Assembly: GCA_032622095.1 (NCBI GenBank)
Contig: CP136065.1
Span: 51,579,949-51,643,948 of the forward strand
Direction: 5' to 3'
Origin: Siphonodentalium dalli
Lineage: Eukaryota > Mollusca > Scaphopoda > Gadilida > Siphonodentaliidae
Length of the DNA stretch: 64,000 nt
Shown: piece by piece, positions 2,891 to 57,757 of the stretch
Layout of the letters: the number at the start of each line of letters is the position of its first letter
How positions within the stretch are numbered: position 1 is the stretch's first letter
Position numbers and translations under genes: made by a program
The notes under the pieces: generated by a model
Database searches by the model: none
What the model saw: the letters and a program-made list of their open reading frames with translations, nothing else
Told to the model about the DNA's origin: nothing

Positions 2891-2984
2891 ATTATTGTGT
2901 TCATACATAGGATCGTATTATTTTCTGGAATCGACGACGAACATATATTTTTATGGTAACGGATATCATGGAGCACCTATACAG

Positions 2985-4590: not shown

Positions 4591-4621
4591 TCGGGACCAA
4601 TATTTGAAATAGTGTGTCATT

Positions 4622-4700
4622 TGCAGAATGAGGTTCCCAAATGGTGAATTTAACGACGTTAGCGTCATTAAATTAACTCTCTGGGAACCTGGGTCTGTTT
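4622..4700. repeat. Small hairpin repeat, GCAGAATGAGGT type, copy 1
   Basis: GCAGAATGAGGTTCCCA on the left pairs with TGGGAACCTGGGTCTG on the right, with inner arms GTGAATTTA/TAAATTAAC. A second copy of the same family is at 5983-6079. Confidence 0.5.
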
Positions 4701-4974
4701 AACCTCAACCGCTATTGGACACATAGGCAGGGACGTGGCTAGAGGGTCTCCGTTGCGGGTGGGGGGTGCCAACATTGGGAAATTCCAACTTCACCCCCCC
4801 CACTTGAATCAGAATCAGACCAAACTTGCATAATTCCATTTGCACCCCCTCCTTGCACCTCAGTGCTCAGGCCTAATATCCTATATATTCATAAACCATG
4901 GTTCTATATTCCCGGTATGACAACATTCAGATATTTTAACCTGAACAATTGCATAAATCCTAACATCTAGTGGT

Positions 4975-16221: not shown

Positions 16222-16234
16222 ATTACATTCTAAA
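16222..16234 (+). repeat. Left target-site duplication of ORF1-only LINE copy A
   Basis: ATTACATTCTAAA here matches ATTACATTATAAA at 19685-19697 with one mismatch, and both lie at the element's ends. Confidence 0.65.
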
Positions 16235-16839
16235 CCCCCGTCTGGGCCCGGGGTAGAATGGGCCTACCGCCCCACTGCGAGGGGTAAAAATCCCCTATTG
16301 TGGCACCCTGTTTGCCGTGGCGTGCATCCCATGAGGCGTGGTGTAGGAGTCCTGCATGTACCAACACGGCCGTATCACGCGAGGCATCGACCTGCGGATA
16401 CGACTTAGATCACGGTTCTCTTTGGTCCTCCATCTCGTCAAGACGGGTGGTTGAGTTGAGCCGGCTCAATCAATCGGCTAGTCACGCCTCTCCACAGTGT
16501 TTCAGATTCAATTTTTGTTATGTTGTCTGATGTTTGAAGTATTGTTTTCTGTTTTTTTTGTCACGTATGCTGTTTCTGTTCTCTCCTGTCTCTTTTGTGT
16601 TCGTCCTGATGATTTTGGAGTGTTGAATCCTGTATTGTTCATCTCTGTCTCACTGGAGAGGTACCGTCCGTCTCATTGGAGAGCCTGCTATAAACAATGG
16701 CTAAATGGGTCACCGCTTCAGCTATGACCGGTCTTGGCCCGACCAGAATTCGAAGAGTATTCCACGGCGGCTACTGGGCTAGTTGCCGAATTTTTGCTTT
16801 TCGTATGGCAACTAAAAAAAAAATGTGAAACGACCTTCT

Positions 16840-17505
16840 ATCTTTGTCATTGATAAAACGCTACAAAGCATTGCTGGACAATTGAAATCTGTTAAACCAA
16901 TCAGGACTGGGCCAACAAGTGGCTCTCTCTTGATTGAATGATCAAAGAATGTTCAATCTGATGCTCTGTTGCAGTTAGCAACTATTGCACAAACACTAGT
17001 GTTCGTTACTCATCACAAGACATTGAATAGTAGCAGAGCTGTGTTGTGTACCCGCGATATAGCTGATTGTTCTGAATCAGAAATATTGGCGGATTTGGCA
17101 CCACAGTGAGTTACAGAAGTCCGTAGATTTACAAAAACAGTTGATGGACTTCGAGTCCCTCCTAGTTATTTTCTGACCTTCAATCGGTACGAATATCCAC
17201 CGACATTGAAGGTTGGGCACACGAAGGTAGATGTAAGTACCTATGTTCCAAATCCAATACGATGTTTTAAATGCCAGGGCTATGTCCATGGCCAAGACCA
17301 TTGTAAAAGTAAAGAAACCATTTGTGCACGCTGTACTTTTTCTGGTCATGATTATAAGGATTGTACAAATCCTAAAAAAGGTTCGAACTGTCAAGGTTCA
17401 CATAATGCAATGGATCGTTCATGTCCCATGCGGGACTATGCATTCAAGATACAAAGATGTAAGGCTGAGAAACATTTATCGTATTTTGATGCTAAGAAAA
17501 TAGTT
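16840..17505 (+). pseudogene. Gag-like LINE ORF1 with CCHC zinc knuckles (broken)
   Basis: The reading frame gives a Gag-like nucleic-acid-binding protein of the jockey/CR1 ORF1 type: a front segment with FVIDKTLQSIAGQLKSVKPI, a middle segment with YVPNPIRCFKCQGY, then two perfect CX2CX4HX4C knuckles (from 17266 and 17320). A third knuckle has lost its first cysteine (GSNC; copy C keeps CSNC). Such proteins bind the element RNA. The frame has two stops: TGA in LLIE*SKN (private to this copy) and TGA in LAPQ*VTE (shared with copy B). It is then cut by the L1-like insertion; its last codons resume at 19042 (SGRPSITQI). Confidence 0.8.
17380..17505 (+). repeat. 126-bp target-site duplication, left copy
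   Basis: Identical over all 126 bases to 18916-19041. The sequence is ORF1 coding sequence of LINE copy A, so the duplication was made by insertion of the L1-like element between the two copies. Confidence 0.93.
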
Positions 17506-18915
17506 GTTTTTTTTTTTTTTTTAAATGTTTATTGAAGAAACAATCACATTGAGGAATGTCAAATACAGAATGTTCAATAGCATTGATAAGTGTATACAGA
17601 TATGGCATTCCTCGCGTTCACACATATCTCTTTCTTACTGCACGCACTCGCCTGGCTCACAGCATTCGCACACCAGTGGTATAAAGTTATACAATACATA
17701 AATATATGCATATGCTTAGTATATATATAGTAAATGTATTATAAATATGTCGGATGTTTCGGATGGACTCAACTCTCAACATAGAGGCTATCGTGGAGAT
17801 GGTGGTAGATAGTATATGTTTTAACTGACTGCGTGATAATCGATAGGAGTCTCAAATATTAAAGTAACTTTGTCGAAATTTTTATTAAGTCGCCTGTTTG
17901 TTTAAAGCTTTTTCTATAAGGAACCAGTTTTTCAAGAATTCTGAAAGTTTCGATTGACATCGTGCTGTATATTTTTCGCAATCGTATCTATATGCCAACT
18001 CTTTGAGGAAAACATTAACAGACAAAGTGATTGGTTTAAATTTAGACCGATATATATATTGTTTAATTAGGAGCCAGAGCAAGTTTGTAGTATAGTTTTT
18101 ACTAATGGGTGGTGTGCCAAGAATCATCGTCATATTTGTGGGATAAAGATTTATATAATTATTTTTACCCCAATTACAGATATCTCTAATAAATGCCTGC
18201 ACATGACAACAATCCCAAAAAATGTGGTTGATATCTTCCTTTTCACTTTTACACCTATCACATTTGCCATCTTGTCTTATATTAGAAATGTGTAGAAAGT
18301 TATTAGTTGATAATATTCTAGAATTTATTCGGAATTGTAGCCATTGTAGCTTGGTGTCAGGCGTCGTGAGAAAGGGTAGTTTATCATATGTAAATAATGT
18401 ACTTCCCATATCAGGAAACTGTGATTGCCATTTTGTGCGCGCTTTAGTCATAATTTGAGAATCGTTCAAAGTTTTGTAAAAATCTTGTCCTCCCCGCGAA
18501 TTTTTAAGCAAAGTGATGAAGTTAGTGGGTAGAGTGGGGTAAGAAACTCGAGTTATCTGTTGGCCAAGCTTTTTTGCTGTTGATTTTATTTGCTGCTGTA
18601 TAGTGTTTACAGTGATGAAGTCTGTGCGTATATTAAATGTCTTATGTATGGCTTCTTGTGAAAGAAAAGAACCTTTACTATCTAGCATATCATTTATATA
18701 CATAATCCCTTTTTCGCGCCAAGAAGTGAAGTTTATTACCTTTCCATATTGTTTTATATTTGAATTATTCCACAGCGTACATGTGGATATATTGCAATTG
18801 TTCACATTTTGTTGTAAAAATTTGACAAATGATAACAAAACGTCATGCCAGAATGGATTTGTGAATTTCTTTGCCTGTTTCTCTAAATAGCCATGCTCAT
18901 ATGTAAGGAACATGG
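17506..18915 (-). mobile_element. 5'-truncated L1/Tx1-like LINE inserted in LINE copy A
   Basis: Read on the minus strand: the tail of a LINE ORF2 (stop at 17885), a 3' UTR, an AATAAA signal about ten bases before the end, and a 16-base poly(A) at 17522-17507. It is bounded exactly by the two 126-bp target copies. The 5' end is truncated inside ORF2, as usual for target-primed reverse transcription. The perfect duplication implies a very recent insertion, much younger than its decayed host LINE. Confidence 0.92.
17885..18915 (-). pseudogene. C-terminal part of L1-like ORF2 (zf-RVT region)
   Basis: An open frame of about 343 codons without breaks. It has the post-RT region of L1/Tx1-type ORF2: WREKGIMYINDMLDSKG, KLQWLQFRINSRILSTN, then the zinc-binding motif CDRCKSEKEDINHIFWDC (CX2C...HX4-5C, the zf-RVT pattern), and a C-terminal tail ending KALNKQAT. 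The endonuclease and RT are absent because of 5' truncation. The first 22 residues of the long ORF (M at 18979) are read from the duplicated target and are not part of the element. It cannot encode a working retrotransposase. Confidence 0.85.
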
Positions 18916-19041
18916 GGTTCGAACTGTCAAGGTTCACATAATGCAATGGATCGTTCATGTCCCATGCGGGACTATGCATTCAAGATACAAAGATGTAAGG
19001 CTGAGAAACATTTATCGTATTTTGATGCTAAGAAAATAGTT
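18916..19041 (+). repeat. 126-bp target-site duplication, right copy
   Basis: Second identical copy of the ORF1 segment at 17380-17505; beyond it the ORF1 frame continues as SGRPSITQI. Confidence 0.93.
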
Positions 19042-19065
19042 AGTGGCAGACCATCAATTACTCAA

Positions 19066-19374
19066 ATCATGGATATCATTGGAACCGGCTCCTTGACCAC
19101 ATTGTGATAGTTACAGTTATGCCCTGTGTCAATGCATTCTCTTATATATGCGAGTCGACTATATGTCGCCTCGCATATATAAGAGAATGCATTGGCCTAA
19201 AAAATAATTTTTTTTAACACTTTTTACCATTTTTTCTTACATTCTTTAACAATTTTATAATTGTTAATGTGTTAAGCCAATGCATTCTCTTATATATGCG
19301 AGGCGACCTATGGTCGACTCGCATATATAAGAGAATGCATTGGCACAGGGCCCTTCTGTTGGGTAAAGGGTTAA
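19066..19374. mobile_element. M1-type TTAA MITE, copy 2 (5' truncated)
   Basis: From GGATATCATTGGAACCGGCT to TGTTGGGTAAAGGGTTAA it matches 35265-35489. The first ~95 bases of the full copy, including the left TIR, are missing at the junction with LINE copy A. It contains several copies of the core AATGCATTCTCTTATATATG in both orientations. Confidence 0.75.
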
Positions 19375-19684
19375 ATTAAATTATTTATTCCTGCTGATTA
19401 ATTGTATGCAGGTTTTATATTTTGGCTGTTCTCAAAGCAGCGTTGCTGTGTTTTCTGATATTCTGTTTTATGGGTTTGCACATTGGTCAGTTTCTTAATG
19501 GTTCTGACCACAATCGAGCAGTCTCTCTCTGATTTGGGTTTTTATTTGTATATATTTAGTTTCAGTTTAATCTAATTCACGGTTACGTATATACACAGTT
19601 GCTTCGCTTGATTCTGATTCAGTTTATCTCAGTCGTGATGTGGCCTAACGGCTAAAACGAGTAAAATCCTAGCTAAACAAACAA
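19375..19684 (+). repeat. 3' region of ORF1-only LINE copy A
   Basis: Matches the 3' ends of copies B (28530-28810) and C: TTTGCACATTGGTCAGTTTC, ACAGTTGCTTCGCTTGATTC, AGTCGTGATGTGGCCTAACG and GCTAAAACGAG. It shows that the element reaches its 3' end without any RT sequence. Confidence 0.7.
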
Positions 19685-19697
19685 ATTACATTATAAA

Positions 19698-20289
19698 ATA
19701 ATTGCGTGTATGTAAAATGAGTAGCATTTATATTAGTGTCGCGCTAATGTTTATATTGTATACTTTTTAGAAGAAGCAAGCTACTATGATTGTATTAACC
19801 TATCCAGTTTGGAGGGAGTTTTAAGACTGTATTCCATTTGTTTTATCCAGCCGGAAGTAGACAAGATGAGAGGGTACCGATGTGGTGGAAAACGGCATGA
19901 GAATCAGCCCTAGCCTTCAAAATGAAAATCGCTAAATAACCCATAATGTTAACTCTGACCTTCCTGGGCATATCTGCTGCGTCACATGAAGCAGTAAAAC
20001 ATAAAGGCAAGTGGATTGGATGATCTGGGAACATACAACGGCTGTTTGTGGGAGATTTGGTGAAAGAAAAACATGCATCAAACTCCTCGAAAATATGATT
20101 TTTGCTTATGACGGCAGCCATCTTGGATTTGGAGATCAGGTGACATTAAACAATTGGAATTATTTAGCACAACTCATCCCGATGTTGAAAATATACATGC
20201 CTTGCCTCTACTCAAAATATCCAAGGAACGAGTTTTTGAACAGTTGCCCACACACCATATACCGAGTAACAATGACAGAACCTTCAACC
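19698..20289. other. No recognisable feature
   Basis: Two overlapping short ORFs on opposite strands (19843-20121 and 20011-20319) share this stretch; neither matches a known family. Treated as non-coding. Confidence 0.35.
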
Positions 20290-20500
20290 TTTTATTCCCT
20301 AGATACCCATTGCAAGTAGTTCTCTTAGGAAATGTTCAGATACTAGTTTCAACAAACAATCATATGCCATTTCTTGTATTTATTATCTGAATATTTCCCA
20401 ATAATGAACAGGAATTCACCTGTACTTGTATTATACGTCTGTCGTCTGCTAATATTTTTCGAACATCCCTCCGATGAATAATAGAACATTCCAAAGTATA
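20290..20500 (+). mobile_element. R1 MITE copy (diverged)
   Basis: CAACCTTTTATTCCCTAGATACCCATTG, split here as CAACCTTTTATTCCCTAG and ATACCCATTG, then GGAAATGTTCAGATACTAG, GTCTGTCGTCTGC and CATCCCTCCGATGAATAATA. Closest to the copy at 23635, with which it shares the ATACTAGTTTCAACAAAC block. Confidence 0.6.
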
Positions 20501-20598
20501 TTTTTATTTAGCAACGAAAGGGTGAAGATACCTCAGGTAATTATGTTTTTGTAGGAGAAGTACATGTGGTCACGGCCATTTTATCGCGGATTACAAGA

Positions 20599-20810
20599 TT
20601 AACCCTTCCGTGACGGGAGCTTCCTGAAATTTTGTGAAAACCATGTGCCAATGCATTCTCTTATATATGAATGTTTCACATAGGGAGCCTCGCAAACATA
20701 AACTAATAATTTTTCGTAACAAGATTTACCTCGACCTTGTAAGCCAGTGCATTCTCGTATATAGGATATTTAGTGCTGCAGCAGCGCAGCTTCCACCATG
20801 AAAGGGTTAA
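20599..20810. mobile_element. M1-type TTAA MITE, copy 3
   Basis: Left end TTAACCCTTCCGTGACGGGA, right end CACCATGAAAGGGTTAA with an inner GCAGCTTCC/GGGAGCTTCC match. The core GCCAATGCATTCTCTTATAT is present. Flanked by TTAA on both sides. Confidence 0.75.
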
Positions 20811-21345
20811 GAGGAAACTAGACCTATACGATGCACCAAGTCTCTGAGTCCATGTGGCTCAACATAATCGCACTAGGAATATTAAAATGAGCGACCGAGA
20901 TCCATTCTAACGCATAACGAAATTCCGTCTCAGGAGATCCAAATTAAATTCCAAATGAATATTTCAGTGTTTGTCATATTATACTCTAGAATAAGTTCAT
21001 TGATGTGTGAATCTCAGACGTAAATTTGCGATATCTCACGAGCTAATAAGATTAAAAATCGAAGATTGCAAGTCATGATTATATTTGCTCCAAGAAACTC
21101 GATCAGCTGCGCCTAAACGCTTTCGGGGATAGGTCTTAGGTGCAAGAATCCTTGGCATACATCAGGCTTAATAACCCATACATTCTTGAACGATTGTATG
21201 CTTGCAGTATAAAATAAATCGGGATTGGGCTATCCTTAATTTAGCAGAGATGTTCGGAAAATTTAAGTATACGACACGCCATAAGCGGATTATCTGTCAA
21301 TTCATTCGTAATGGTGTTCGGATAGTACGTCCACAAACAGTGTAC
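20811..21345 (+). repeat. Duplicated segment, copy 1
   Basis: The run from GAGGAAACTAGACCTATACG to CCACAAACAGTGTACTTAC is repeated at 24537-24900. The first ~290 bases are nearly identical; the second copy then lacks internal stretches. Each copy follows an M1 MITE, so a larger unit including the MITE was duplicated. No ORF is conserved in it. Confidence 0.8.
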
Positions 21346-21699
21346 TTACTTTGTTACATGTAGCTGAACAACCCCTACAAACGGACGATTGTAGATGAGT
21401 TAACTACCCACCAAAGGCTATCTGGATACTACAGGTTAAATGGTATATTCGGTGCGTCTAACATTCTAAAGCTAAAATACAAGCGGCGAATTGCATAAAG
21501 CTTGGTATATTATATATACCTTTATTTCACTCGTATTCCAGAGAGCTTACATTTTCAGACAATAAACAAGAACACAATACAAAGGAATTTCATATTTACA
21601 AAAATATTTACATAGCCTGTCCGCGATACAACAATCCTGTTTGGTGATTGGTCAACTGCCAACTGGGTCACCCGATTTACATCCAGCGGTTATAAATTT

Positions 21700-22690
21700 T
21701 TATCGCATATTCCGAATGGGAAGAGTGATTCGGACCGGATTGTACCGCTTAGTATTTTTTTTTAGCCCCAGCCGTTACCGATGTAAAAAAAATCACATAT
21801 TTCCCCCTCCAAATTCTAACGGGCTAATGAAAGAGCGAGGTAATGCAGTAGCTGGTACGGTACGTCGGTATGCTGTATGTACGCAACCAACGCTCTATTC
21901 TAAAATCAACCTGCCCAACGGAGAATGCGCGTCGAGGTGTGTTGAGACTTTTGGAAAATTTCACGGAAAATCGTTAAGGGAACAATTTGGCAAAATTGAA
22001 ACATCGAGATAAAAATTTGTTGACGAGTGCATCTGATGGGTAGTGTCCACACGCAGGTTTATAGCGATTTTCGAATATTATGAGCGAATGGTTTACTCGT
22101 GACAGTGCTATATAACGTAAATACGTATATGTAAGTAGTGTATTACTAACTTATTTTTGCCCCAAATCCAAACGGGCCACGGAAGGAGCGAGTTTATTGC
22201 AGGAACACGTACTTCGGTAAACTGTGGGTACGTCACCAAAATTTGACCACTCTGCTATAAATGAAACCTGCCCGACAGAGATCTGGCGTCGGGTGGGTTC
22301 AGACTTGGCAAATTCCACCGAAAATCAAAAGGGCTTCAAAAATCAAACATTGAGATAAAAACGTTTCGACGAGTGGATGTGGTTGGTAGCTCTAATTCAA
22401 ACCCTCTAGTATTGACGTCAAATACACACGGGCTAATGAAGGAGAAAGGCTAATGAATGAGCAGGTACATCGGTATACCTTAGGTACGCACAAAGGTACA
22501 CCGCTCTACTATGAAAGTAACCTGCCCAAACGGAGAGCGCACATACGCCCCAGGTGGGTCAAGGCTTTTGGCAAATTCCACCGAAACTCGTAAAGGGAAA
22601 ACAATTGGAAACAAAGCGAATCTCGATTTTTTATATTTTGACCACTGCATGTGTTTGGTAGTATCTACGGAAACATTATTGCGATTTTCA
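21700..22690 (+). repeat. R5: three degenerate units of ~330 bp
   Basis: Units begin near 21770, 22150 and 22415. Each has in order a CAAATNCNAACGGGC block, GGAGCGAG, a GTACGTC/GGTAC block, CTCTACTATGAAA-like, AACCTGCCC, GGTGGGTTCAGACTT-like, GGCAAATTCCACCGAAA and GAGATAAAAA with CGACGAGTG. A fourth copy lies inverted at 55250-55500. The 123- and 62-codon ORFs here are not conserved between units. Confidence 0.7.
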
Positions 22691-23072
22691 AAGTGTTAGA
22701 GCGGCGAATAAGCACTCAGCTAGCGTTATCGATTGTGATAGAGTTATCTCTCTATAGGACGTAAACGACTCTTTGTAGCGATGATGTCCTGAAATACATA
22801 TATTATTAATTAACAAATTAAGCGGTCTTTTCTCCGTCAATAAAACAACTAAAAGATACTGATTCCGAAACTGAAAGAATTTTCCATAAAATGCGAAATA
22901 ACAGAGGTATGGTACATTAATACGCGTTATACCATCTTGATCTACATGTAGATTACGATATAATCAGACACGCCAAATTTCGTGACCGTTGAGCAGGATT
23001 TGGACGTCATGGCATGAGGAGGGATTGTAATTATCCCTAAAATGTATCTAATCGAAATGAACGATTGATTGG
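22691..23072. other. No recognisable feature
   Basis: AT-rich spacer without ORFs or clear repeats. Confidence 0.4.
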
Positions 23073-23152
23073 GGTAAACGGTGGCTCAGTTGGTTAGGAT
23101 AATGATGCATTAGACTGTCACTAACCATCCACGCTGGTTCGAACTTAAAACC
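23073..23152 (+). repeat. tRNA-like sequence, probable SINE head
   Basis: GGTGGCTCAGTTGGTTAGGA contains a perfect RNA polymerase III A box (TGGCTCAGTTGG). About 50 bases on, CTGGTTCGAACTT resembles a B box. I could not fold a clean cloverleaf with an anticodon, so a tRNA-derived SINE head or tRNA pseudogene is more likely than a working tRNA. No second copy was seen in the window. Confidence 0.5.
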
Positions 23153-23634
23153 TTGTACTATATATCTTATTTCGAAATGTCAATTCAAGTCTGCCATCAG
23201 ATCACGAAGCACCAGTATGCATCCACAATCTCACATGAAGAGGAACACACCTACGCAGAGCACACACATGGGATGCCGATACCATGGAAGTATATCTGAT
23301 TACATTGAATCATATATTTCATATTACGAGTCTTGTTCTGTGTTTTACAGTATATGGCCCAGGTGTCTTGAATATCGCAGGCCAGTGGCGTCGACCAAGG
23401 AAGTTGCTGGTGCAGACACATGTCCATTCCGAGCCTCTATTATAAACCGTATTTACATGGGTTACACATCAAAAGAAGATTGGCTATATACATTTGCCAA
23501 ATGAAAATATGTTTGCCAATTGTTTTTGCCTTTTGCAAGTGGCAGCGTGAACCCTGCACTGTATAACCAAATTATGGGTGTCCTAAATAGTCCGTTTAAA
23601 TTTGTAAATGTAGCGTATATTATAGTGAACCTTT

Positions 23635-23812
23635 AACATTTTATTCACTAAATACTCATTGGCAACTAGTTCCCTTAAGAAATGTTCAGATACTAGTTTC
23701 AACAAACGATCAAATGCCATTTCTTGTACATATTATCTGAATATTTCCCAATGATGAATAGGAATCCATCTGTACTCGTATTATACGTCTGTGGTCTGCT
23801 ACTATTTCCCGG
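23635..23812 (+). mobile_element. R1 MITE copy, 3' truncated by the R4 element
   Basis: CACTAAATACTCATTGGCAA, AATGTTCAGATACTAGTTTC, ACTCGTATTATACGTCTGTG and GTCTGCTACTATTT match the 20290 copy. It stops where the R4 sequence starts. Confidence 0.6.
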
Positions 23813-24328
23813 GCGGCATTCGTTGCAGAAATATTCATATTTGTTCAAATCGCGATCAACAGAAGGAATTTTAAAATATAAATAGTTTTGTTCATATGAC
23901 AAATATCATCAGCGCGTAAATAGTATATTGTCGTCAAGACGTACGATGGTGTACGTAAACAAGAACCTGCTCGCGTTACATAAGTTTTGCTTCTGTTTAC
24001 ATAACACAGCGCAATTCTATTGGTTAATCACACACAAATGATATAAACGCTCTTTATTATTTCTATATCAGGAAAACAGTAACAAATAACGCTCTTTATG
24101 TTTACCATATCTGGATCTAAACAAAAGCCAGGTTCTGTAACGTTTTTTGCATTTGTTTACATAACAAAGGCAAACCATTTGACAATAGCATACTGTTTAT
24201 GCCATATTTCTGATTGGTATAAGAACAAGGTATGTCTATAGTTTACTATTATTTCTGTTTATGTCGGTTTTTGACGGAGGTGAACATTTTAACAGCATAC
24301 CCACCGCCAACGCCGCCCGTATCTTTAA
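23813..24328 (+). mobile_element. R4 TTAA MITE, copy 1
   Basis: Matches the complement of 41750-42228 over about 480 bases: AATATTCATATTTGTTC, GGTTAATCACACACAAATG, AAACGCTCTTTATTA, ACGCTCTTTATGTTTACCAT and TTTGTTTACATAACAAAGGC. It ends CCGCCAACGCCGCCCGTATC then TTTAA, corresponding to the TIR at 41750. The final TTAA (24325-24328) is also the first TTAA of the next MITE. Confidence 0.7.
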
Positions 24329-24536
24329 ACCTTCAACGACTGGAGCTTTCTGAATTTTTGCGAAAACCATGTGCCAATACATTCTGTTATATATGAGAGT
24401 TACACATAGGGAGCCTCGCATATATAAAATAATAATTTGACCTAACAATATCTACCTTGACCAAGTAAGCCAGTGCATTCTCTTATATAGGATATTCAAT
24501 GCAGTAGCAGCGCAGCTCCCGCCATGAAAGAATTAA
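24325..24536. mobile_element. M1-type TTAA MITE, copy 4
   Basis: Same layout as 20599-20810: a diverged left end (TTAAACCTTCAACGACTGGA), core sequences GTGCCAATACATTCTGTTAT and GCCAGTGCATTCTCTTATAT, and a right end CGCCATGAAAGAATTAA. Confidence 0.7.
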
Positions 24537-24900
24537 GAGGAAACTATACCTATACGATGCACCAAGTCTCTGAGTGCATGTTTCTCAACATAATCGCACT
24601 AGGAATATTAAAATGAGCGACCGAGATCCATTCTAACGCATAACGAAATTCCGTCTCAGGAGATCCAAATTAAATTCCAAATGAGTATTTCAGTGTTTGT
24701 CATATTATACTCAAGAATAAATTCATTGATGTGTGAATCTCAGACGTAATTTTATCTCAAGAGCTAATCAGATTAAAAATCGAAGATTGCAAGTCATGAT
24801 TACATTTGCTCCAAGAAACACTTTCGGGGATATGTCTTAGGTATACGGAACCTTGGCATACATCGGGCTTAATAACGTCCACCAACAGTGTACTTAGGGT
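24537..24900 (+). repeat. Duplicated segment, copy 2 (with deletions)
   Basis: Copy of 20811-21345, nearly identical through GATTGCAAGTCATGATTA, then missing stretches before CCAACAGTGTACTTAG. Confidence 0.8.
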
Positions 24901-25310
24901 TCGTGAAGTTGGACCGAAGTTCGAAATTCGGCGGAGATTCGCGTGATGTTAGATTGAAGTTCGATGTTCGAAATTCGGTGGAGATTCAACCCCTAAATTT
25001 GTTTGCCTCAAATTCTTTGTTGTTATCCAATTCGTGCTCCGCTTCTCGAATTTTGGGTCAAAAGTGATACTGCTGGACATAGTAATACACAGGCGACATA
25101 TTACTTGTGCTGTTGTTCCATTGTGTGTATGTGTGTGCACGGTTGGCCATGGTCTGCTAGGTGTTATTGTTTTACAGGATCGTCATTTCTAGCCGCGTCG
25201 GCTAGATTGACATTGAGATAAGCTCTTTGTATTGTCAAGTCGATTTTTCTGTTGAGTTGTTATGTCCATACGCGACATCGGGGAACATGTACTTCACGAA
25301 CACTTGATTT
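24895..25310. repeat. Segment bounded by inverted GTTCGTGAAGT and containing a small tandem repeat
   Basis: GGTTCGTGAAGT at 24899 is matched inverted by ACTTCACGAAC at 25291. Inside the left end, GTTCGAAATTCGG(C/T)GGAGATTC occurs twice. It could be a terminal part of a mobile element; no family was recognised. Confidence 0.35.
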
Positions 25311-25433
25311 CGAACAGAGTTTTATTCATTAAACACAATTCAATATTAAATAAGCAAAGAGGCGTGAATGGGACAATTGGAAAGGAAATCAAGTGTACAC
25401 TTTTGCAATAAACTTATTCTGATTCTGAAGTTT

Positions 25434-25869
25434 TAGACAATGGACAGAAGTATTTATCTGTAAGGTGTGTGACCACTGAAACATTAACTAATACTGGCAA
25501 AACTACCAAGACCCGTTTAGTTGCCAGAGGATTCGAAGAGACTATGTTCCAAAGAAAGTCTTCGTTTGATGCTATCGATTATTTCCATTAAAAATTAGAA
25601 AATAAGTTCACTGGATTTTAAGGCTGCATTCCTTCAAGAAAGAGACTTCAAAATGGATGTCTTTCTCAAACCATCGAAGGAGTTGGTGATCCGGTCTTTG
25701 GAAACTGAAGACAGCAGTTTGTGGACTCGGCGATGATTATCTTGTGTATTATTTATCTGTTAAAGATAAACTCTTATCACTTGGGGTGAACTTGTGTAAA
25801 TATGACCCGGCACTGTTTAGTTGGTTGCACAACAATGAACATGGTGTAATTGCATGTCATGTGGATGAC
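25434..25869 (+). pseudogene. Copia (GalEa-like) reverse transcriptase, fragment 1
   Basis: Translated pieces in shifting frames match the Copia RT: KTRLVARGFEE, FKAAFLQERDFKMDVFLKPSKE, LGVNLCKYDPALFSWLHNNE, then GVIACHVDD, where HVDD corresponds to the catalytic YVDD box. The order and wording fit the GalEa-type Copia elements known from molluscs and crustaceans. The frame is broken by stops and indels. The pol continues after two inserted elements, at 26909 and 28811. Confidence 0.8.
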
Positions 25870-26908
25870 CAGTCTGGAGTAAACTACATACCCACATATA
25901 AAAAATAGTGGGTCTGACGAGCTTTCGTTCAGTTTTCATTTCCCAAACCCGGGATTCCTTGTAATTACCGCCAATCAAAACTTAGCTCCGAGAAATGTGT
26001 GCCCCAATAAAAAACTAGTAACATGTCACGTGCTCTCGGTGTGGAAATTCCGAAGGTGTGGCTAAATGTTGTTAAAATAGTATTCATGACGTCATGTTAT
26101 ACCGGAAGAGAAATTCACAAATCGACAAATAAAGTAGATTGTTGACGAGCGGTCGAAAGTTTAAAATCAAGAATCACCGGAATTTGGATTGCAGGCAACT
26201 GTAATTAGGGTACAACTGGCCAAACTTTGGAGCTAATAATACGAATGTGTACGGTCGGGGGGGGGGGGGGGGGGGGGTTGTTCGGTGGAGTTGGTGGTAG
26301 AATTGTGTTGCTCTTCGCTCGTTTTGGCTGCGGTGGTACTACTGCCGGTACTGGGGACCTGATACTGATAGATCGTTTTGTTATGTCATTTAACTTTTTT
26401 TTAGTTCTGTAGTTGTTTTAGCAGATAGTCCCGACATTCATGTATTTTTTATTCGTGGCCGTTGATTTGTGTTATTTTTTGACAACATGGGCGACAAATC
26501 GCCTGGCCAATCTAAAAAATAATTCGTTCCGAGTCCAAGCGATCCACATAAATTGACATTTTTTATAGTTTCAAGAAGATCTGTCTTAGTTATTGTACAT
26601 ATTATTTTGGATCCCGGAAGCTAGCTGTTTCCCTTTATTGTCAGTAAAACAACCGCCGAACGAAAAGTCACAAACCCTGCAACTATTAATTCTGATTCTT
26701 GTTAGAATCGGCTTCACATGGTTGAAGCGGCCATGACGGCACTGGCACGTGACCATGTTTACGCCTGTCAATCACAACTAATTTCAGATTTATATTTAGT
26801 GCGGTGTGACGTAATTTGGGGAAGCCCTCAACCGTTCAGAAATGAAAAGTTGATGGGAATGCAATAGACTCAGTATCAGTATGAATCTGAGTATGTTTAC
26901 ATAGACTG
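25870..26908. mobile_element. DNA transposon (non-autonomous, hAT- or MULE-like) inserted in Copia pol
   Basis: Starts CAGTCTGGAGTAAACTACAT and ends GTATGTTTACATAGACTG; these ends are imperfect inverted repeats of about 20 bases. GTGGATGAC flanks it on both sides (25861-25869 and 26909-26917), an 8-9 bp target duplication made from the Copia sequence. The interior of about 1 kb has no transposase. It holds a run of 21 Gs at 26257-26277. An 8-bp TSD and CAG ends would suggest hAT; a 9-bp TSD would fit a Mutator-like element. Confidence 0.75.
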
Positions 26909-27047
26909 GTGGATGACTACCCCGTGTTAGTTGGTTGCACAACAATGAAGAACATGGTGTAATTGCATGTCATGTGGGTGACTACCCCGTGTTAGTTGGT
27001 TGCACAACAATGAACAACATGGTGTAATTGCATGTCATGTGGATGAC
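26909..27047 (+). repeat. Tandem duplication of Copia RT sequence next to LINE copy B
   Basis: A unit of about 70 bases, GTGGATGACTACCCCGTGTT then AGTTGGTTGCACAACAATGA and GTGTAATTGCATGTCATGT, occurs twice. The TACCCCGTGT part equals the first ten bases of LINE copy B, which begins right after the second unit. Confidence 0.75.
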
Positions 27048-28810
27048 TACCCCGTGTGGGCCCGGGGTAGAGTATACCTTTCTGCCCAACTGCGAGGGGT
27101 AAGAATCCCCTAATGTGTCACCCTGTTTTCCGTGGGGTGCATACCATGAGGTGTGGAGCAGGAGTCATGGAGTACAAGGGCGGTCATATCACGTGATGCA
27201 TCGGCCTACGGATACGGCTTACACCATGGTCCTCTTTGGTCATACATCTCTTCAAGACGGGTGGTTCAGTTGACCCGACTTAATCAATCGGCTGGCCACG
27301 CCTCTCCACAATGTTTTAGTTACATTTCTGCCATCTGTTCTATTATTTTTCTGGTGTCTAGTTGTGTCTTCTGTTTTTCATGTATGTTGTTTCTTTGGTG
27401 TCATGTCTGTTAATTGTTGAAAGTCTTGTACTGTTCACGACTGTCTCACTGTGATGAGGTACCGGGAGGCTGGTGCATGCAGTGACTAAACGGGTCACGC
27501 TTCAGCTATGTACCAGTCTTAGGCCCGACCATAATTTGAAGGGTAGTCCGAGGCGGCTGCTGGGCTAGTTGTCCAGGTTAGGATTTGTATATGGCAATTC
27601 ATAACAAATAAAAACGTAAGATTGACAAAATCCACTGATGCTGAGGTCTAAATTTGAACAGTACCTGGTTCTTGGTTTTGATCCAAATGTCAAGAGACCT
27701 TCTGTATTTTTCATAATTTGACGGATAGTCTGAGGCGGGCTAGTTATCCATTTTTGGATTTTTATATGGCAACTCATGACAAATAAAAACGTAAGACTCA
27801 CCCCTCGCCAAGATCAACTGATGCTGAGGTCTATCCTCAGTACTCGGTTTTGATCCAAATGTCAAGAGATCTTCTGTATTTGTCATTGATAAAACGCTGC
27901 AAATCATAGCCGGACAATTAAAATCTGTCAAACCGATCAGGACTGGGCCACTACTGAGTGGCTTTATTCTGATCGAATGTTCAAGAAAAACTCATACTGA
28001 CGCTCTTCTGCAATTAACATCTATTGTACAAACACCAGTTGAATAGTAGCAGAGATGTGCCGAGAACTCGCGATATATAGCGGATTCTTCTGAGTCAGAG
28101 ATATTGGCTGAGTTAGCACCACAGTGAGTTACAGAAGTCGGTAGATTCACAACAACAATTGATGGACAAAAAGTTCCTTTGAATCGTTATCATTCAACAA
28201 AAAAATCATCAATTGCTTCGCAAAAAGATCGCCAAAGTAACTCAAACGTTTCAACTCTCAGAAAGAGAGGAACATCTTTGAGCTTTCAATATTTGACCAC
28301 ATGATCGATGAGAAGCGGTTAACTCCCAAGGACAACAAACAGTATTTGTGGATCGAGGCTGTCGGTTGGTGAAGGATGACATTCTGTCTCACCCACCCGA
28401 CCGTCAACGTGATGCATTGTTAAAGGTTCATGCGCGATTAATCAAATACTACAAATTCCTTATCAGTGCAATATCTGATTTGAAAAGCAACTTTACATAT
28501 TTCGACGTGGATTCTTGGTAATTTCGTGTTATTTATTTGCTGTTGATTATCTATTCTTATACTACTTTTATACATTTTATAGTATGTTTGCACACTAGTC
28601 AGTTCTTGAATCTTTATTCCTGACTCCAAGTGGAAACATTCTTCTTGTGTGCTTTTATTTATACATAGCTTATTGCATTGTTTTAATCTAATCCACTGTC
28701 TGATTTATCTACAGTTGCTTCGCTTCGATTGTTTTTTTATACCTGATTCTGTTCTTGGTCGTGATATATGACCTAGTAGCTAAAACGGCGTTAAACCCTC
28801 AATCAATGAA
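27048..28810 (+). mobile_element. ORF1-only (HAL1-like) LINE, copy B, 1.76 kb
   Basis: Begins TACCCCGTGTGGGCCCGGGG and ends GGCGTTAAACCCTCAATCAA TGAA. TCATGTGGATGAC at 27035-27047 is matched by TCATGTGGATAAC at 28811-28823 (one mismatch), both from the interrupted Copia RT, so these are the true ends. Between leader and 3' tail there is only a decayed ORF1 (about 27870-28520). Part of the leader is duplicated in tandem (from about 27544 and about 27725). No endonuclease or RT is present in a copy complete at both ends. Confidence 0.82.
27860..28521 (+). pseudogene. Gag-like LINE ORF1, copy B (decayed, zinc knuckles deleted)
   Basis: FVIDKTLQIIAGQLKSVKPI, LLQLTSIVQTPVE and SESEILAELAPQ*VTEVGRF align with copy A, including the same in-frame TGA. 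The zinc-knuckle part is deleted after DGQKVPLNRYHS. The C-terminal part, SHPPDRQRDALLKVHARLIK then YYKFLISA, is shared with copy C and with the fragment at 57571. Confidence 0.72.
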
Positions 28811-29703
28811 TCATGTGGATAACTTATTATGGTGTGGCTCCTACATCTTCAAAGGAAAGCTAGCTCCGTCTCAGGAAATAATTAGTCAGTAAAGAATCAT
28901 CAGATGTTTTGGGATTGAGTCTTAAACAAGACAGTATATATCTCACTCAAATGCAGTACATTTCCGATATTGCGTACATACACATACCAGTGGAAAGACA
29001 GATCCACGCCAGGTTCTGAAATGAAACAGCTGATATCACTTGTCGGACAATTAAATTGGACAACTAACCAAAGCCAAAGTCTTGTCTTATGATGCATGTG
29101 AATTAAGTGTACAACGGAAGAATGGTTCAAATCAGGATTTGCAGTCTGCCAACAAAACTATCAGAAAAATGAAATCCGAATCTGTACAAGTAAAATTTCG
29201 GAATGTCGGAAATATGTTGGCCTCGAAAATTGTGTGTATCACTAATGCTTCATTTCAATAATCTCCCAGACTGTGGCTCGCAAGGAGGTTATGTGATATT
29301 TCTTGTCAACAAAGACAGCGCTTCACCAATTGCTTGGAAGTCGACAAACATAACAAGAGTGGTGAATAGTACTCTAGCAGCAGAGATATTATCTTTCTTA
29401 GGAGGAGCGGATTACAGTTACATGTATCTCATCAGATGTGTGCTACGTGAATTATATAATGATGGCATCAACAAACAACCATTTCCAACCATCAGTCTGA
29501 CTGATAACACATCATTGATTCAGTCAACTCTTCATCACTTGTTGATAAAAGGCTGATAATTGACACAAGTATTCTCAGAGAGATGTCAAAGAAATTGCAA
29601 CATTAAGTGGATTAGCAAGGAATATCAACTCGCTGACTGCCATACAAAATTGAGTTCTCCAAGGATGAAACTTGAGCAGTCAATACTTACATTGTACCGC
29701 TGA
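28811..29703 (+). pseudogene. Copia (GalEa-like) RT end and RNase H, fragment 2
   Basis: Continues the Copia pol after the LINE: HVDNLLWCGS completes the catalytic box region (canonical HVDDFLWGG), then LSYDACELS and the RNase H domain at 29240-29700. ITNASFNNLPDCGSQGGYVI, WKSTNITRVVNSTLAAE and KWISKEYQLADCHTKLSS are typical Copia RNase H motifs. It ends with a stop at about 29703. Several stops and frameshifts precede the 117-codon open piece at 29203-29556, so it is inactive. Confidence 0.82.
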
Positions 29704-35168: not shown

Positions 35169-35489
35169 TTAACCCTTTACCCAACAAACCGGCCAAAACC
35201 GGCCAAATAAAGCTTCAACAGCCTAAAATATCTTCGGTCTGTCTCAATAGAACCATACAAATATGGATATCATTGGAACCGGCTCCTTGACCACATTGTG
35301 ATAGTTACAGTTAGCCCTGTGCCAATGCATTCTCTTATATATGCGAGTCGACCACATTTTTTAACAATTTTATAATTTTTAATGTGTTAAGCCAATGCAT
35401 TCTCTTATATATGCGAGGCGACCTATGGTCGACTCGCATATATAAGAGAATGCATTGGCACAGGGCCCTTCTGTTGGGTAAAGGGTTAA
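35169..35489. mobile_element. M1-type TTAA MITE, copy 5 (complete)
   Basis: TTAACCCTTTACCCAACA at the left and TGTTGGGTAAAGGGTTAA at the right form a perfect inverted repeat including the TTAA flanks. The interior holds ATGCATTCTCTTATATATGC twice forward and once reversed, making a long hairpin around 35388-35462. No ORF. It is the best full-length reference copy of this subfamily in the window. Confidence 0.88.
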
Positions 35490-41268: not shown

Positions 41269-41749
41269 TTGAACCCATTGTATATATGTATATAACCATG
41301 TGCTGCATTAATTTGCAGCGTTGACAATTAAAGCATTAGATACAAAAGGTCAAAGTATTGACAACTATTCTGAAAATCAGATGTAAACGAAAATATTTGA
41401 TCAAAAGACGAAATGAGCGATGATTGTTGACATATCACTGTGACCTCTGACCGCTTTGTTTACCAAGTCTTCTTGAGTTATTCTAGTATTGCGCGTATTG
41501 ATCGACGACACGGCAGCGTCCATGATTGATTGAGGGTTTAACGTCGTTCTGGTCGCTAGGTCATACCACGAGCAAGAACAGAATCAGGTATCAAAAAAGC
41601 ATGTAGCGAAGCAACTGTGTAGATAAATCAGACAATGGATTAGACTAAAACATTGCAATGAGCTATGTACAAAAGCAAACAAGAGGAATGTTCCCACTTG
41701 GAACATAAACTCAAGAACTGACTAATATGCTATCATACTATAAAGCCTA

Positions 41750-42228
41750 TTAAAGGTGCGGTTGGCCTTGGCGGTGTGTATCCTGTGAAAATATTTCCAC
41801 CCGTCAAAAACCGCCACAAACAGAAAGAACATCAATATGTAGACCGACTTTGTCCGTATACAAATAAGAAATATCGCATCAACATTTGACCATTGTTATG
41901 TAAACAAAAGCATAAAAAGTTACGTTTCTGGTGTTTGTTTATATTATGATGGTAAACATAAAGAGCGTTCTTTGTTGGTGAATTATATGGAACTAATAAA
42001 GAGCGTTTATGCCATTTGTGTGTGATTAGCCAGTAGCATTGTGCTGTCTTCTGTAACACAATCAGGCTCTTGCATATTTAAAATATAGTAGGTCTTTATG
42101 ATAACATTTGTTTACGTGATGGTCATGGTATATATGAACGAAACTGTATGCGTTTTAATGTTTTTCTGTTTACGGTGATTAGAACAAATATGAATATTTT
42201 CAACAACTAAGGCCTCATGTGCCTTTAA
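41750..42228 (-). mobile_element. R4 TTAA MITE, copy 2, inside LINE copy C
   Basis: Left end TTAAAGGTGCGGTTGGCCTT, right end AAGGCCTCATGTGCCTTTAA: imperfect inverted repeats flanked by TTAA. The interior matches 23813-24328 in reverse. No transposase, so non-autonomous. Confidence 0.78.
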
Positions 42229-42700
42229 AGTATTTTAAAATCAGATTTTGCATTGATAAGGTATTTAAAATATGTTATGAATCGTGCATGTACCTTTACC
42301 AATTCGTCAAGCTGACGGTCGGTGGGTGAGACGGAATGGCACTCTTCACCCAATCCAAAAATACTGTTTTTGTCTTTAAGAGTTAAGTTTCTCATCAAGC
42401 AACTGACATAAACGATCCACTGAAGCATGTGAACCTTGACAGTTTGAACATTTCTTAATATATGTACAATCCTTATGATAGTGACCAGAAATAGAACATC
42501 GTGCATATATGGTTTCTTTACTTTTACAATGTTCCTGGTCGCACTGATTGAAGGTCAAACGATAACTATTCAAAAGAACTTTTAGTCCGTCAACTGTCTT
42601 TGTAAATCTACGGACTTATGTAACTCCCTGTGGTGCAACTCGGCCACTCAGAAGAATAAGATATATCACGAGTTCTTAACACAGCTCTGCTACTATTCAA
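42229..42700 (-). pseudogene. Gag-like LINE ORF1, copy C (CCHC knuckles)
   Basis: Pieces in shifting frames: APQGVT*VRRFTKTVDGLK, FNQCDQEHCKSKETIYARCS (knuckles degraded: some cysteines changed), DCTYIKKCSNCQGSHASVDR, and the C-terminal part HSVSPTDRQLDELVKVHARF followed by ITYFKYLINA. At the position of the TGA shared by copies A and B, this copy has GGG (Gly), so it descends from a version without that stop. Frameshifted and inactive. Confidence 0.72.
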
Positions 42701-42990
42701 TGTCTTGTGGGAATAATCAGCACTACCTTCGAATTATGGTCGGGCCAAAGACTGATACTTAGCTGAATCGGTGACCCGTTTAGCCATTGCATATAGCAGC
42801 CCCCACGTTGAGACAGGCATGAACAATACAAGATTCAAAGATAACAATCATGAAGACGAAATACAAAGAGACATGACACGAAAGAAACAACATACATGGA
42901 AAACAGAACACACAACTAGACACCAGAAACAAAATAAAACAGATGGCAGAAAAAACTTAATAATTGTAGAGTGGCGTGACTAGCCGATTC

Positions 42991-53757: not shown

Positions 53758-54262
53758 TATTATAGCATGTCACAATGAAAACATAACTGAGCGATGAACT
53801 AAGTAAGTATACAAACAAATGAATAACAATTAAATAATGAACAAGACTATTCACATTATCATGTATGATGTGCATGTATACGTTGGCGTATGTCATGTTA
53901 ACCGCTGGCTAATTGTATTCTGTATTTACATTGAAGCCTATTAAGCATTGTGCTAACGTATGTGACATTTCATATCTTACAGTAATATGAGCCACACTGC
54001 TGAAGTTTATTTCTCAAACAATGCGCTATGTGGTGTATATGATGTTTTAATGTACATTTGAGAATGGAGGACTTAATGTCTGGGATTCTTTGTATTACGA
54101 AGACCTACATATATCATTACTCGACAAATCGATCTCCGAGAACTGATCATGATTCAGGAATACCTTCGCGTGTCAATCAAGATAATGCATGTCCCATAAG
54201 CAGAGTCACATTTCACTCCAGATTAGTCAAACGTACCCAGCAATTTCCGCTCACCCAACAAA
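53758..54262. other. Upstream of the intact LINE; 5' limit unresolved
   Basis: Some of this may be the LINE's 5' UTR and internal promoter, but I found no boundary, TSD or ORF1. Confidence 0.35.
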
Positions 54263-54505
54263 TTATTGGTTGAAGGTTTAACGTCATTTAGCCGCTATGC
54301 TATATCACGACCAAGAACATAATTAGGTAGTCAAAACAAAAAGATATCGTAGCGAAGCAACAGTTACTACGCAGATAAATCAGACAGTAGATTAGATTAA
54401 AAGAACTGATTAGTGTGAAAGTATACTACCAAACGCATAACAGTTAGTACGAGAATACATAATAAATAGCAAATAAATAACATAAATAAACTAGAGGTCA
54501 GATTC
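54263..54505 (-). mobile_element. ORF1-only LINE family, 3' end fragment (copy D)
   Basis: On the minus strand: TTATTTGCTATTTATTATGT, ACACTAATCAGTTCTT, AATCTACTGTCTGATTTATC, TGTTGCTTCGCTACGA, TCTTGGTCGTGATATAGC, GCGGCTAAATGACGTTAAAC. This is the same 3' region as in copies A, B and C. No ORF1 here, so it is a strongly 5'-truncated copy. Confidence 0.8.
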
Positions 54506-57064: not shown

Positions 57065-57571
57065 GGTAAGTCCTCAGGGAAAGCGCGGACACAATTTTTG
57101 ATACCCGTGGGCAGTAGGGCATATCGAGGTGTGCATTTGGTCCAATTTTCGATGCTCTGCGCCTCATAACTTCCGAGATAATAAAATGACATTGTTTTAT
57201 ATAAAGGGAGATAACTCCGCAGGGGAAACGCGGACAATATTCATTATACGACGACCGGTTAGAACTCATTGACACCAACATACGTACAAAATTTTAGTTT
57301 GCTACTCCTCATACTTTCAGAGAATAAAGAGTTGCAAAATGGTTAAGTATAATAATAATAATGAAAATAATCGTTTTTTTCTATTTTCTCCGTCATTAAA
57401 TGTTTGGCCGAAATCGCGATATTACCATTTTGAGTGTTCCTTAAATGCCTACATTCCCTGAAAATATCGCGTTCCTACTGCAATTAGTTTCTGAGTATTT
57501 CCAATTAAACGGAAAACTGCCTCAATAGAAAAACAATATACTTCCTTGGTTACACCATGGAAGTATAATAA
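57065..57571 (+). repeat. ~500-bp direct repeat, copy 2
   Basis: Second copy of 55661-56153. It ends directly against the ORF1-only LINE fragment at 57571. Confidence 0.9.
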
Positions 57572-57757
57572 AAGGTATTTATACTATTTGATGAATCGCG
57601 CGTGAACCTTTATCAATGCGTCACGGTGGTGGTCGGGTGGGTGACGCAGAATGTCAACTTTTGCCCAACCGAGAGCTTCAACCCACAGCTAATGTTTGGT
57701 GTCTCTGAGAGTGAGTCGTTTCTCGTCAATCATCTTATCAAACTTTGCAAATTCAAA
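57571..57757 (-). mobile_element. ORF1-only LINE family fragment (copy E) abutting the satellite
   Basis: On the minus strand it matches the C-terminal part of ORF1 in copy B (28290-28460) and copy C (42253-42390): CACCCACCCGACCACCACCG, GCATTGATAAAGGTTCACGC, GCGATTCATCAAATAGTATA. The satellite begins where the match ends. Confidence 0.75.

What the first reader, a model, noticed from the sequence alone, without database searches (positions are those of the whole stretch)
16235..28810. An ORF1-only LINE family (HAL1-like) in an invertebrate
Copies A (16235-19684), B (27048-28810) and C (41522-42990) share a leader, a Gag-like zinc-knuckle ORF1 and a 3' tail (…CGTTAAACCC…), with no endonuclease or RT between ORF1 and tail. 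A and B have 13-bp target duplications at both ends, so they are complete insertions of about 1.6-1.76 kb, not chance deletions of larger copies. Half-LINEs of this kind are known for L1 in mammals (HAL1). Trans-mobilisation by an RT-bearing partner with the same tail is inferred.
Basis: partly seen in the sequence, partly recalled or inferred. Interest (0 to 1): 0.78.

Follow-up and report, generated by a model that had tools for sequence, protein, structure and literature searches.

The report
Half-LINE borrowing its partner's tail
This animal genome holds a large family of jumping genes that keep only the first of the two usual LINE genes and end in a tail shared with a rarer, complete LINE, so they very probably move with borrowed machinery, as a mammalian family called HAL1 is thought to do.

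Summary
A, B and C are damaged copies of a roughly 2.1-2.2 kb ORF1-only LINE family: leader, CCHC-type ORF1, 3' UTR ending in a stem-loop plus short repeats. tblastn with the partner ORF2 found no RT in L001-L061 or A/B/C. None of 140 scored ORF1 loci has a listed ORF2 within 8 kb; 9 of 10 close partner-type ORF1 loci do. Ten of 14 two-ended copies have target duplications above control. ORF1 evolved under purifying selection (dN/dS 0.50 against 0.98 and 1.08 in the wrong frames).

The predicted partner exists: a rare, young LINE with RT and RNase H, probably of the I superfamily. It has the same first 100 bp (87%) and the same 3' UTR (90%), but its ORF1 is only 43% identical. So this is no recent deletion product: an old half-LINE lineage carries the tail of a present-day partner, and its copies seem to have exchanged tails more than once (AU test).

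Corrections: canonical length is about 2.1-2.2 kb, B lacks the zinc knuckles, C is 5'-truncated. Trans-mobilisation itself is inferred. Works like HAL1; not a member.

The parts
16235..19684 (+). half-LINE copy A (A-type tail), interrupted by two later insertions
   Evidence: blastn to B, L005, L007, L060; TSD score 10 against null 95% of 8
16222..16234 (+). 5' target duplication of copy A
   Evidence: 12 of 13 match with 19685-19697
19685..19697 (+). 3' target duplication of copy A
16822..17505 (+). copy A ORF1 fragment with CCHC knuckles (residues 43-271 of the L060 frame, 84% identical)
   Evidence: tblastn
17506..18915 (-). later insertion inside copy A: poly-A-ended (poly-T on + strand), flanked by a 126-bp exact duplication (17380-17505 = 18916-19041); identity not tested
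19121..19351 (.). fold-back repeat inside copy A, also present elsewhere in the window
19352..19684 (+). copy A 3' UTR and tail
   Evidence: blastn and UTR tree
27050..28810 (+). half-LINE copy B (B-type tail), internally deleted, no zinc knuckles
   Evidence: TSD score 11
27035..27048 (+). 5' target duplication of copy B
   Evidence: 13 of 14 match
28811..28824 (+). 3' target duplication of copy B
41522..42990 (-). half-LINE copy C: 5'-truncated, B-type tail, with an insertion at about 41756-42232
54262..54482 (-). 3' end of a fourth copy D (B-type tail)
   Evidence: blastn 76-82% to B
57563..57760 (-). ORF1 C-terminal piece, probably of the same copy D
   Evidence: tblastn 43% to the L060 ORF1 frame, E 2e-11; blastn 77% to B

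Best explanation
The thing is a family of ORF1-only non-LTR retrotransposons (a 'half-LINE'). Its standard element is about 2.1-2.2 kb: a 5' leader beginning C(n)GTGTGGGCCCGGGG, one ORF for a three-knuckle CCHC protein, and a 3' UTR ending in a stem-loop followed by (AATC)n or similar repeats. SHOWN: in the copies sampled the family lacks EN-RT; most two-ended copies sit between target duplications; ORF1 evolved under purifying selection; a separate LINE in the same genome has an ORF1, an ORF2 with RT and RNase H, the same first 100 bp of leader and the same 3' UTR and tail; tails and ORF1s of half-LINE copies do not share one history. INFERRED: the partner's ORF2 protein recognises the shared 3' stem-loop of half-LINE RNA and copies it into the genome by target-primed reverse transcription; half-LINE ORF1 protein coats its own RNA; the half-LINE survives by taking up 3' ends of RT-bearing LINEs.
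For: No RT in copies read: tblastn of the partner ORF2 (728 aa) against L001-L061 and window A/B/C, 0 hits at E<1e-3. ORF1-picked copies: 13 of 14 reach a tail within 2.8 kb; L052 does not. A listed ORF2 (65 rows) within 8 kb downstream: 0 of 140 half-LINE ORF1 loci, 9 of 10 partner-type ORF1 loci that hold a piece at 83% or more. TSDs: 10 of 14 two-ended copies score >=9 against 4 of 182 mismatched flanks; L060 has an exact 14-bp TSD. Partner: RNase H (PF00075, E 9.9e-9), RVT_1 (E 1.3e-35); the query copy and three more are 99-100% identical over 728 aa without stops; two copies 99.8% identical over 1971 bp with a shared 5' end. The partner's tail belongs to it: the 5'-truncated ORF2 copy and its tail are flanked by ACATTCCAATTT on both sides, with no duplication at the UTR junction. 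Shared ends: leader 87% over 101 bp; 3' UTR 90.1% to L005-type half-LINEs (within-type 90.9%), while ORF1 is 48% at nucleotide level and 43% in protein. Tail types are not clades on the ORF1 tree: AU p 6e-60 (A, 7 rows) and 7e-84 (B, 16 rows). dN/dS 0.50 in frame, 0.98 and 1.08 out of frame (833 and 830 pairs of 42 copies). The 3' end folds as a stem-loop, z -3.3.
Against: No transposition was observed; trans-mobilisation is inferred from shared ends. No ORF1 copy that I read is intact from an in-frame ATG to its natural stop: the ATG is out of frame in L060, L004 and L007 by a small indel, and two of the youngest copies show dN/dS of 0.57 and 0.85 against L060 (L005, L004). Two ORF1 loci of intermediate likeness to the partner (C3:199809547, 58%; C4:233409406, 52%) have no listed ORF2 nearby, so counting them partner-type ORF1 is followed by ORF2 at 9 of 12. 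The ORF2 search scored 61 of 33640 first-look candidates, so distant ORF2s could be missed in the join. L005-type tails are not rejected as a clade on the ORF1 tree (p 0.46), so tail exchange rests on A and B types and on the partner contrast. The partner's EN region was not read, only inferred from the 1270-codon frame. No partner for A- or B-type tails was found.
Confidence: 0.85

Rival explanations
1. Ordinary LINE: the ORF1-only copies are chance internal deletions of a full-length LINE.
For: A, B and C each have their own internal deletions; the partner shares both ends.
Against: 0 of 140 half-LINE ORF1 loci against 9 of 10 close partner-type ORF1 loci are followed by a listed ORF2; no hit to the partner ORF2 in L001-L061; partner and half-LINE ORF1 are only 43% identical.
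Confidence: 0.04
2. Half-LINE as above, but mobilised mainly by RTs other than this partner; the shared 3' UTR is a relic of common ancestry under constraint.
For: The genome holds very many RT loci (38731 first-look candidates for RVT_1); A- and B-type tails have no known partner here.
Against: The 3' UTR of the partner is as close to L005-type half-LINEs as these are to each other (90%), while B-type half-LINE UTRs, with closer ORF1s, are at 69%. None of 15 RT loci (some of one family) and none of 9 other RNase H loci (about five families) whose 3' side I read shows this tail; in some the stretch read may stop short of the tail or is interrupted (L121, L126).
Confidence: 0.1
3. The partner's half-LINE-like 3' UTR is a separate half-LINE tail inserted downstream of an unrelated ORF2.
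For: Half-LINE homology starts about 270 bp after the ORF2 stop.
Against: One 12-bp duplication flanks ORF2 fragment plus tail together, none at the UTR junction (the flanks are tandem repeats and 3 of 62 control windows scored higher, 1 the same, so the match alone is not decisive); full-length partner copies also share the first 100 bp of leader.
Confidence: 0.05
4. Tail exchange is an artefact of chimeric rows (nested insertions, recombination between old copies).
For: Several rows carry insertions (L014, L020, L022), alignments came from BLAST segments, and tail types were named by eye.
Against: A-type tails occur in two well supported and distant ORF1 clades (window A/L049/L051, and L054/L055, the latter pair 99/95), and the AU tests are strong.
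Confidence: 0.2

Closest known systems
HAL1 (half-L1) of mammals
   Same: Encodes ORF1p only, non-autonomous derivative of a LINE (PMC5753468, passages read); half-LINE-1 insertions noted in PMC4859970 (passages).
   Different: HAL1 ORF1 is of the L1 type with a poly-A tail (recalled); here ORF1 is a CCHC protein, the tail is a stem-loop with (AATC)n, and the ORF1 is far diverged from the partner's. HAL1s arose several times from L1; here one old lineage seems to change tails.
HeT-A with TAHRE/TART (Drosophila telomeres)
   Same: One ORF1-type protein, no RT, depends on another element (PMC4700185, passages read).
   Different: HeT-A is telomere-specific; this family has scored ORF1 loci on all nine contigs and target duplications.
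Stringent LINE/SINE pairs with a shared 3' stem-loop
   Same: ORF2 of stringent LINEs binds the cognate 3' stem-loop (PMC4176376, abstract read); SINE tails are said to be exchanged between LINEs (PMC8010984, passages read).
   Different: SINEs carry no ORF and have Pol III promoters (recalled in part); this element encodes a selected ORF1, and no tRNA or Rfam match was found in the copies tested.
I/Nimb-type LINEs (Nimbus of snails)
   Same: The partner has RT plus RNase H and a CCHC ORF1, as in this group (group traits recalled); Nimbus is reported in gastropods (PMC11203168, passages).
   Different: Clade not tested by a tree.

Membership tests
HAL1 | ORF1 only, no ORF2 | tested here: met
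   (sampled and scored loci)
HAL1 | derived from L1, with L1-type ORF1 | tested here: not met
   ORF1 is homologous to the CCHC ORF1 of the partner; the Pfam scan at E<=1 listed only CFAP410_C below its cut-off, no L1 ORF1 family (L1 architecture recalled)
HAL1 | poly-A 3' end | tested here: not met
   tails are (AATC)n, TCAATC or ACAAACAA repeats after a stem-loop
half-LINE (generic, LINE derivative with ORF1 only) | RT-bearing relative with the same ends in the same genome | tested here: met
half-LINE (generic, LINE derivative with ORF1 only) | mobilised in trans by that relative | not testable with these tools
   needs a cell assay
HeT-A type | insertion only at chromosome ends | tested here: not met
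   dispersed places with target duplications
SINE | Pol III promoter from tRNA, 5S or 7SL RNA | tested here: inconclusive
   no Rfam match on copy B at E<=1; no tRNA in B, L060, L129; degenerate A/B boxes were not sought
I superfamily (partner) | RT followed by RNase H in ORF2 | tested here: met
   RVT_1 and RNase_H 9.9e-9 in the same 1007-codon frame
I superfamily (partner) | apurinic-type endonuclease at the ORF2 N-terminus | not tested
   the 5' 277 codons of ORF2 were not fetched
I superfamily (partner) | placement in an RT tree | not tested
   no reference RT set at hand

The most novel reading that the evidence does not exclude
An old half-LINE lineage, separate from any present-day full LINE, keeps its own ORF1 under selection and persists by repeatedly exchanging its 3' end for that of whichever RT-bearing LINE is active, so that the 3' stem-loop acts as a plug-in module. 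The same roughly 42-nt stem-loop is so effective a template that it also occurs alone as a class of ultrashort insertions with a fixed 5' end and target duplications.
Probability: 0.45. Interest if true: 0.75.

Novelty: new variant of a known kind. Interest (0 to 1): 0.62.

Why it matters
Why a LINE parasite would keep ORF1 while giving up ORF2 is an open question; HAL1 and HeT-A are the usual cases. Here both halves of the pair sit in one genome, with young partner copies, three tail types and 140 scored half-LINE ORF1 loci. One can therefore ask directly whether ORF1 acts in cis, which 3' ends a given ORF2 accepts, and how often parasites switch partners. The ultrashort stem-loop insertions give a natural read-out of the minimal template.

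Tried and rejected
RT families: PF00078 search in the genome, 150 hits listed; 3' sides of 15 of them read, none with this tail. 0 of 35 RT and 0 of 35 RNase H hits on C1, C2 and C3 below 55.57 Mb have the exact tail 20-mer within 8 kb. The partner came only from reading 901 bp after each of 10 RNase H loci, of 141 listed. Rfam on copy B and tRNA scans of B, L060 and L129 were empty. Pfam on ORF1 gave nothing over a cut-off. A stricter count of ultrashort against long tails by a longer pattern failed. Covariation of the stem-loop was not counted: the segments I extracted looked too uniform by eye. Papers: the listings shown for (10 to 15 titles each, fewer in 72 and 73, often of many more papers) held no ORF1-only family of I-type LINEs, made for the ultrashort insertions, listed no title on such. 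That is absence in those listings only. Organism not identified.

Limits and dropped rows: 40 of the 60 exact-tail sites have only about 270 bp upstream, so RT further upstream is not excluded there. Repeat counts from the genome search are lower bounds; the hits scored are the best ones. One search used 140 of 149 ORF1 rows and 34 of 65 ORF2 rows and left out two intermediate ORF1 loci; redid it with all rows. Searches counted two copies twice (L001 = window B, L002 = L005); redid dN/dS without them (0.50 instead of 0.49). In one search L016 was dropped because its 5' end was not found. One search used 32 of the 44 ORF1 rows, those with a tail type named by eye and enough codons. In one search the null kept duplicated loci, which raises its 99% level to 17; that set of 27 includes L113 (a different, SINE-like end) and leaves out L112 (duplicate of L111). 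Two RT-like fragments on the opposite strand lie in the flanks of L007 and L012 by eye, outside the half-LINE copies.
Full report
WHAT IS IN THE WINDOW. A (16235-19684), B (27050-28810) and C (41522-42990, minus strand) are related at 69-84% in DNA over stretches above 100 bp. A is interrupted by a 1.4-kb insertion with a 126-bp exact duplication and by a fold-back repeat; B lacks the zinc-knuckle part of ORF1; C lacks the first 250 bp or so of the leader and holds a 480-bp insertion. A fourth, broken copy D lies at 54262-54482 and 57563-57760, minus strand. The target duplications of A (12 of 13) and B (13 of 14) stand above a mismatched-flank control.

THE FAMILY IN THE GENOME. The window lies on contig C5 of a 2.23-Gb, 9-contig assembly. 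The leader of B gave 41 matches with 40 candidates scored of 2206, its tail 40 of 1379, the ORF1 protein 149 matches with 141 scored of 6488; these are lower bounds. I read 10 leader-picked copies with about 7.8 kb downstream, 10 tail-picked copies with about 5.7 kb upstream, 20 sites of the exact tail 20-mer with 1.4 kb upstream, 14 ORF1-picked copies and 40 further tail sites with about 270 bp upstream; the 60 tail sites are from the first 100 listed of 394. Among the 10 leader-picked copies 5 reach a full tail, 2 look like a near-identical pair with a short internal remnant, and 3 show no tail in 8 kb. Of the 14 ORF1-picked copies 13 reach a tail within 2.8 kb; L052 does not. L059, where ORF1 and tail are 9.4 kb apart, holds a long insertion. 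The partner ORF2 has no tblastn hit in L001-L061 or A/B/C. The five best copies are 2.07-2.21 kb (L005, L007, L008, L023, L060). Ten of 14 two-ended copies have a TSD score of 9 or more against 4 of 182 mismatched flank pairs; L008, L009, L020 and L023 fall below that mark, and L016 could not be tested; L060 has TTTAGTGCTGAAAC on both sides.

ORF1. The protein has knuckles CX2CX4HX4C, CX2CX4HX4C and CX2CX3HX6C (read from the translation; the grouping with I/Jockey-type ORF1 is recalled). Frames of up to 453-462 codons without a stop in the match are open, but in L060, L004 and L007 the ATG is out of frame by a small indel, so I have not read an intact ORF1. Over 833 pairs of 42 distinct copies the median dN/dS is 0.50 in frame against 0.98 and 1.08 in the two wrong frames on the same letters; among nine stop-free rows 0.395 (36 pairs). 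Decay after insertion pushes these values up, so selection in the active lineage was probably stronger. For the closest pairs the picture is mixed: 10 pairs with dS under 0.15 have median 0.46, yet L004 against L060 is at 0.85.

THE PARTNER. Of 10 RNase H loci whose downstream DNA I read, one (C5:176344270, frame 1007 codons) runs into the half-LINE 3' UTR and ends with the half-LINE stem-loop and (AATC)n. RT is present (RVT_1 1.3e-35). The query copy and three more are 99-100% identical over 728 residues without stops; more pieces follow at 81-98%, then distant relatives. Upstream of ORF2 in two full-length copies lie an ORF1 of about 474 residues and a leader whose first 101 bp are 87% identical to the half-LINE leader; the two copies are 99.8% identical over 1971 bp and part company at the shared 5' end. 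That the tail belongs to the ORF2 copy rests on ACATTCCAATTT on both sides of the whole unit and none at the UTR junction; the flanks are tandem repeats, and of 62 control windows 3 scored higher and 1 the same. With all 149 ORF1 and 65 ORF2 rows joined by place, 0 of 140 half-LINE ORF1 loci have an ORF2 within 8 kb downstream; of partner-type ORF1 loci 9 of 10 do (those with a piece at 83% or more), or 9 of 12 if two loci at 52% and 58% are counted.

ONE ENDING, TWO HISTORIES. Partner and half-LINE ORF1 are 43% identical over 285 residues, about 48% at nucleotide level for L005-type copies. Over the last 215 bp the partner is 90.1% identical to L005-type half-LINEs (9 rows), which is what these are to each other (90.9%, 36 pairs), but 75% to A-type and 69% to B-type; on the UTR tree it stands among the L005-type rows (group support 84/93, not starred). 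On the ORF1 tree of 32 half-LINE rows the tail types are mixed: at least 6 changes where 2 would do; holding A-type (7 rows) or B-type (16 rows) together is rejected (p 6e-60 and 7e-84), L005-type (9 rows) is not (p 0.46). I read this as repeated exchange of 3' ends, most simply by template switching or recombination. Constraint alone does not explain it, because the ORF1-closer B-type has the more distant UTR.

HOW IT PROBABLY WORKS. The last ~40 nt fold into a two-part stem-loop (CGUCGU...ACGACG enclosing UGGC...GCUA; -11.9 kcal/mol, z -3.3; the B-type form folds alike, z -2.2); the A-type segments have the same arms by eye. In stringent LINEs the ORF2 protein binds such a loop of its own RNA (PMC4176376, abstract). 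The half-LINE RNA would be taken by the partner ORF2 through this loop, with the terminal repeats helping priming; its own ORF1 protein may coat its RNA. The first half of this is inferred from shared sequence, the second from selection on ORF1.

ULTRASHORT INSERTIONS. Of the 60 exact-tail sites 31 match half-LINEs over no more than 34 nt before the 20-mer. By eye 27 of these are L005/partner-type (about 21 after removing duplicated loci), two are internally deleted B-type half-LINEs (L078, L098), one is a short A-type end (L038) and one is SINE-like (L113). In 21 of the 27 homology begins 20-25 nt before the 20-mer, that is about 2 nt outside the stem. Many have clean duplications, such as TCAATGGGCAGTTGC in L082, ATCACCACACAAGG in L091 and CCTTACTCAATTT in L105: 16 of 27 tested rows (12 distinct loci) score 9 or more, null 95% 8. 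A free 3' end of the cDNA that folds back on itself once the stem is copied, or a processed stem-loop RNA, would both give this fixed 5' end; I cannot tell which. The 34-mer covering the loop has 113 exact sites in the genome, control 0; of the 100 listed, 11 have a scored half-LINE ORF1 or leader within 5 kb upstream and none the partner ORF2.

COMPARISON AND NOVELTY. It works like HAL1 (ORF1p only, PMC5753468, passages) and like HeT-A (PMC4700185, passages), and fails defining features of both: no L1-type ORF1 or poly-A, and not telomeric. SINE tails are said to be exchanged (PMC8010984, passages). The listings I saw held no ORF1-only family in an I-type LINE nor a tail-exchanging half-LINE; that covers only the titles shown from the held open-access library for those words. 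I file it as a new variant of a known kind.

Noticed in passing
L082, L091, L092, L105, L106, L039/L101, L036 group and others (60 exact-tail sites): About 42-nt insertions consisting only of the 3' stem-loop plus (AATC)n, mostly with the same 5' end and many with 10-17 bp target duplications; 27 of 31 short sites carry the L005/partner-type tail, one (L038) is a short A-type end.
   Followed up: partly
window 17380-19041: Insertion in copy A flanked by an exact 126-bp duplication, unusually long for a target duplication; the insert ends in poly-A on the minus strand.
   Followed up: no
L010 and L011 (C8 and C3): 8-kb stretches on two contigs that look near-identical by their ORFs and flanks (not aligned), each with a half-LINE remnant of leader plus part of the tail.
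   Followed up: no
C3:28.78-28.81 Mb and C3:32.21-32.27 Mb: Tail 20-mers in clusters, many about 3.0 kb apart: the half-LINE end seems to be part of a large tandem repeat.
   Followed up: no
L113 (C2:128248819-128249179): A different element with the same terminal 20-mer: CTCCACCAATCAAACTGGCGG...GATATGGCTGAAATGCTGCTAAAACGACGTTAAACC; looks like a SINE-type 3' end (recalled resemblance to mollusc repeats).
   Followed up: no
L006, minus-strand ORFs at 2773-4768: Leader remnant next to ORFs that look like a protein-primed DNA polymerase of a Maverick/Polinton-like element (motifs recalled, not tested).
   Followed up: no
C3:199809547 and C4:233409406: ORF1 loci of intermediate likeness to the partner (58% and 52%) with stops and no listed ORF2 nearby; possibly a third lineage.
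   Followed up: no
window from 57603 on: Long 26-bp tandem array (235 registered copies).
   Followed up: no
window 51052-52713 (minus): Fragment of a distant LINE reverse transcriptase (24% to the partner ORF2, E 2.5e-27).
   Followed up: no
window 19121-19351, also 35258-35489 and elsewhere, and L126: Fold-back repeat (CCAATGCATTCTCTTATATATGCGAG...) present many times, by eye also inside an RNase H LINE (L126).
   Followed up: no
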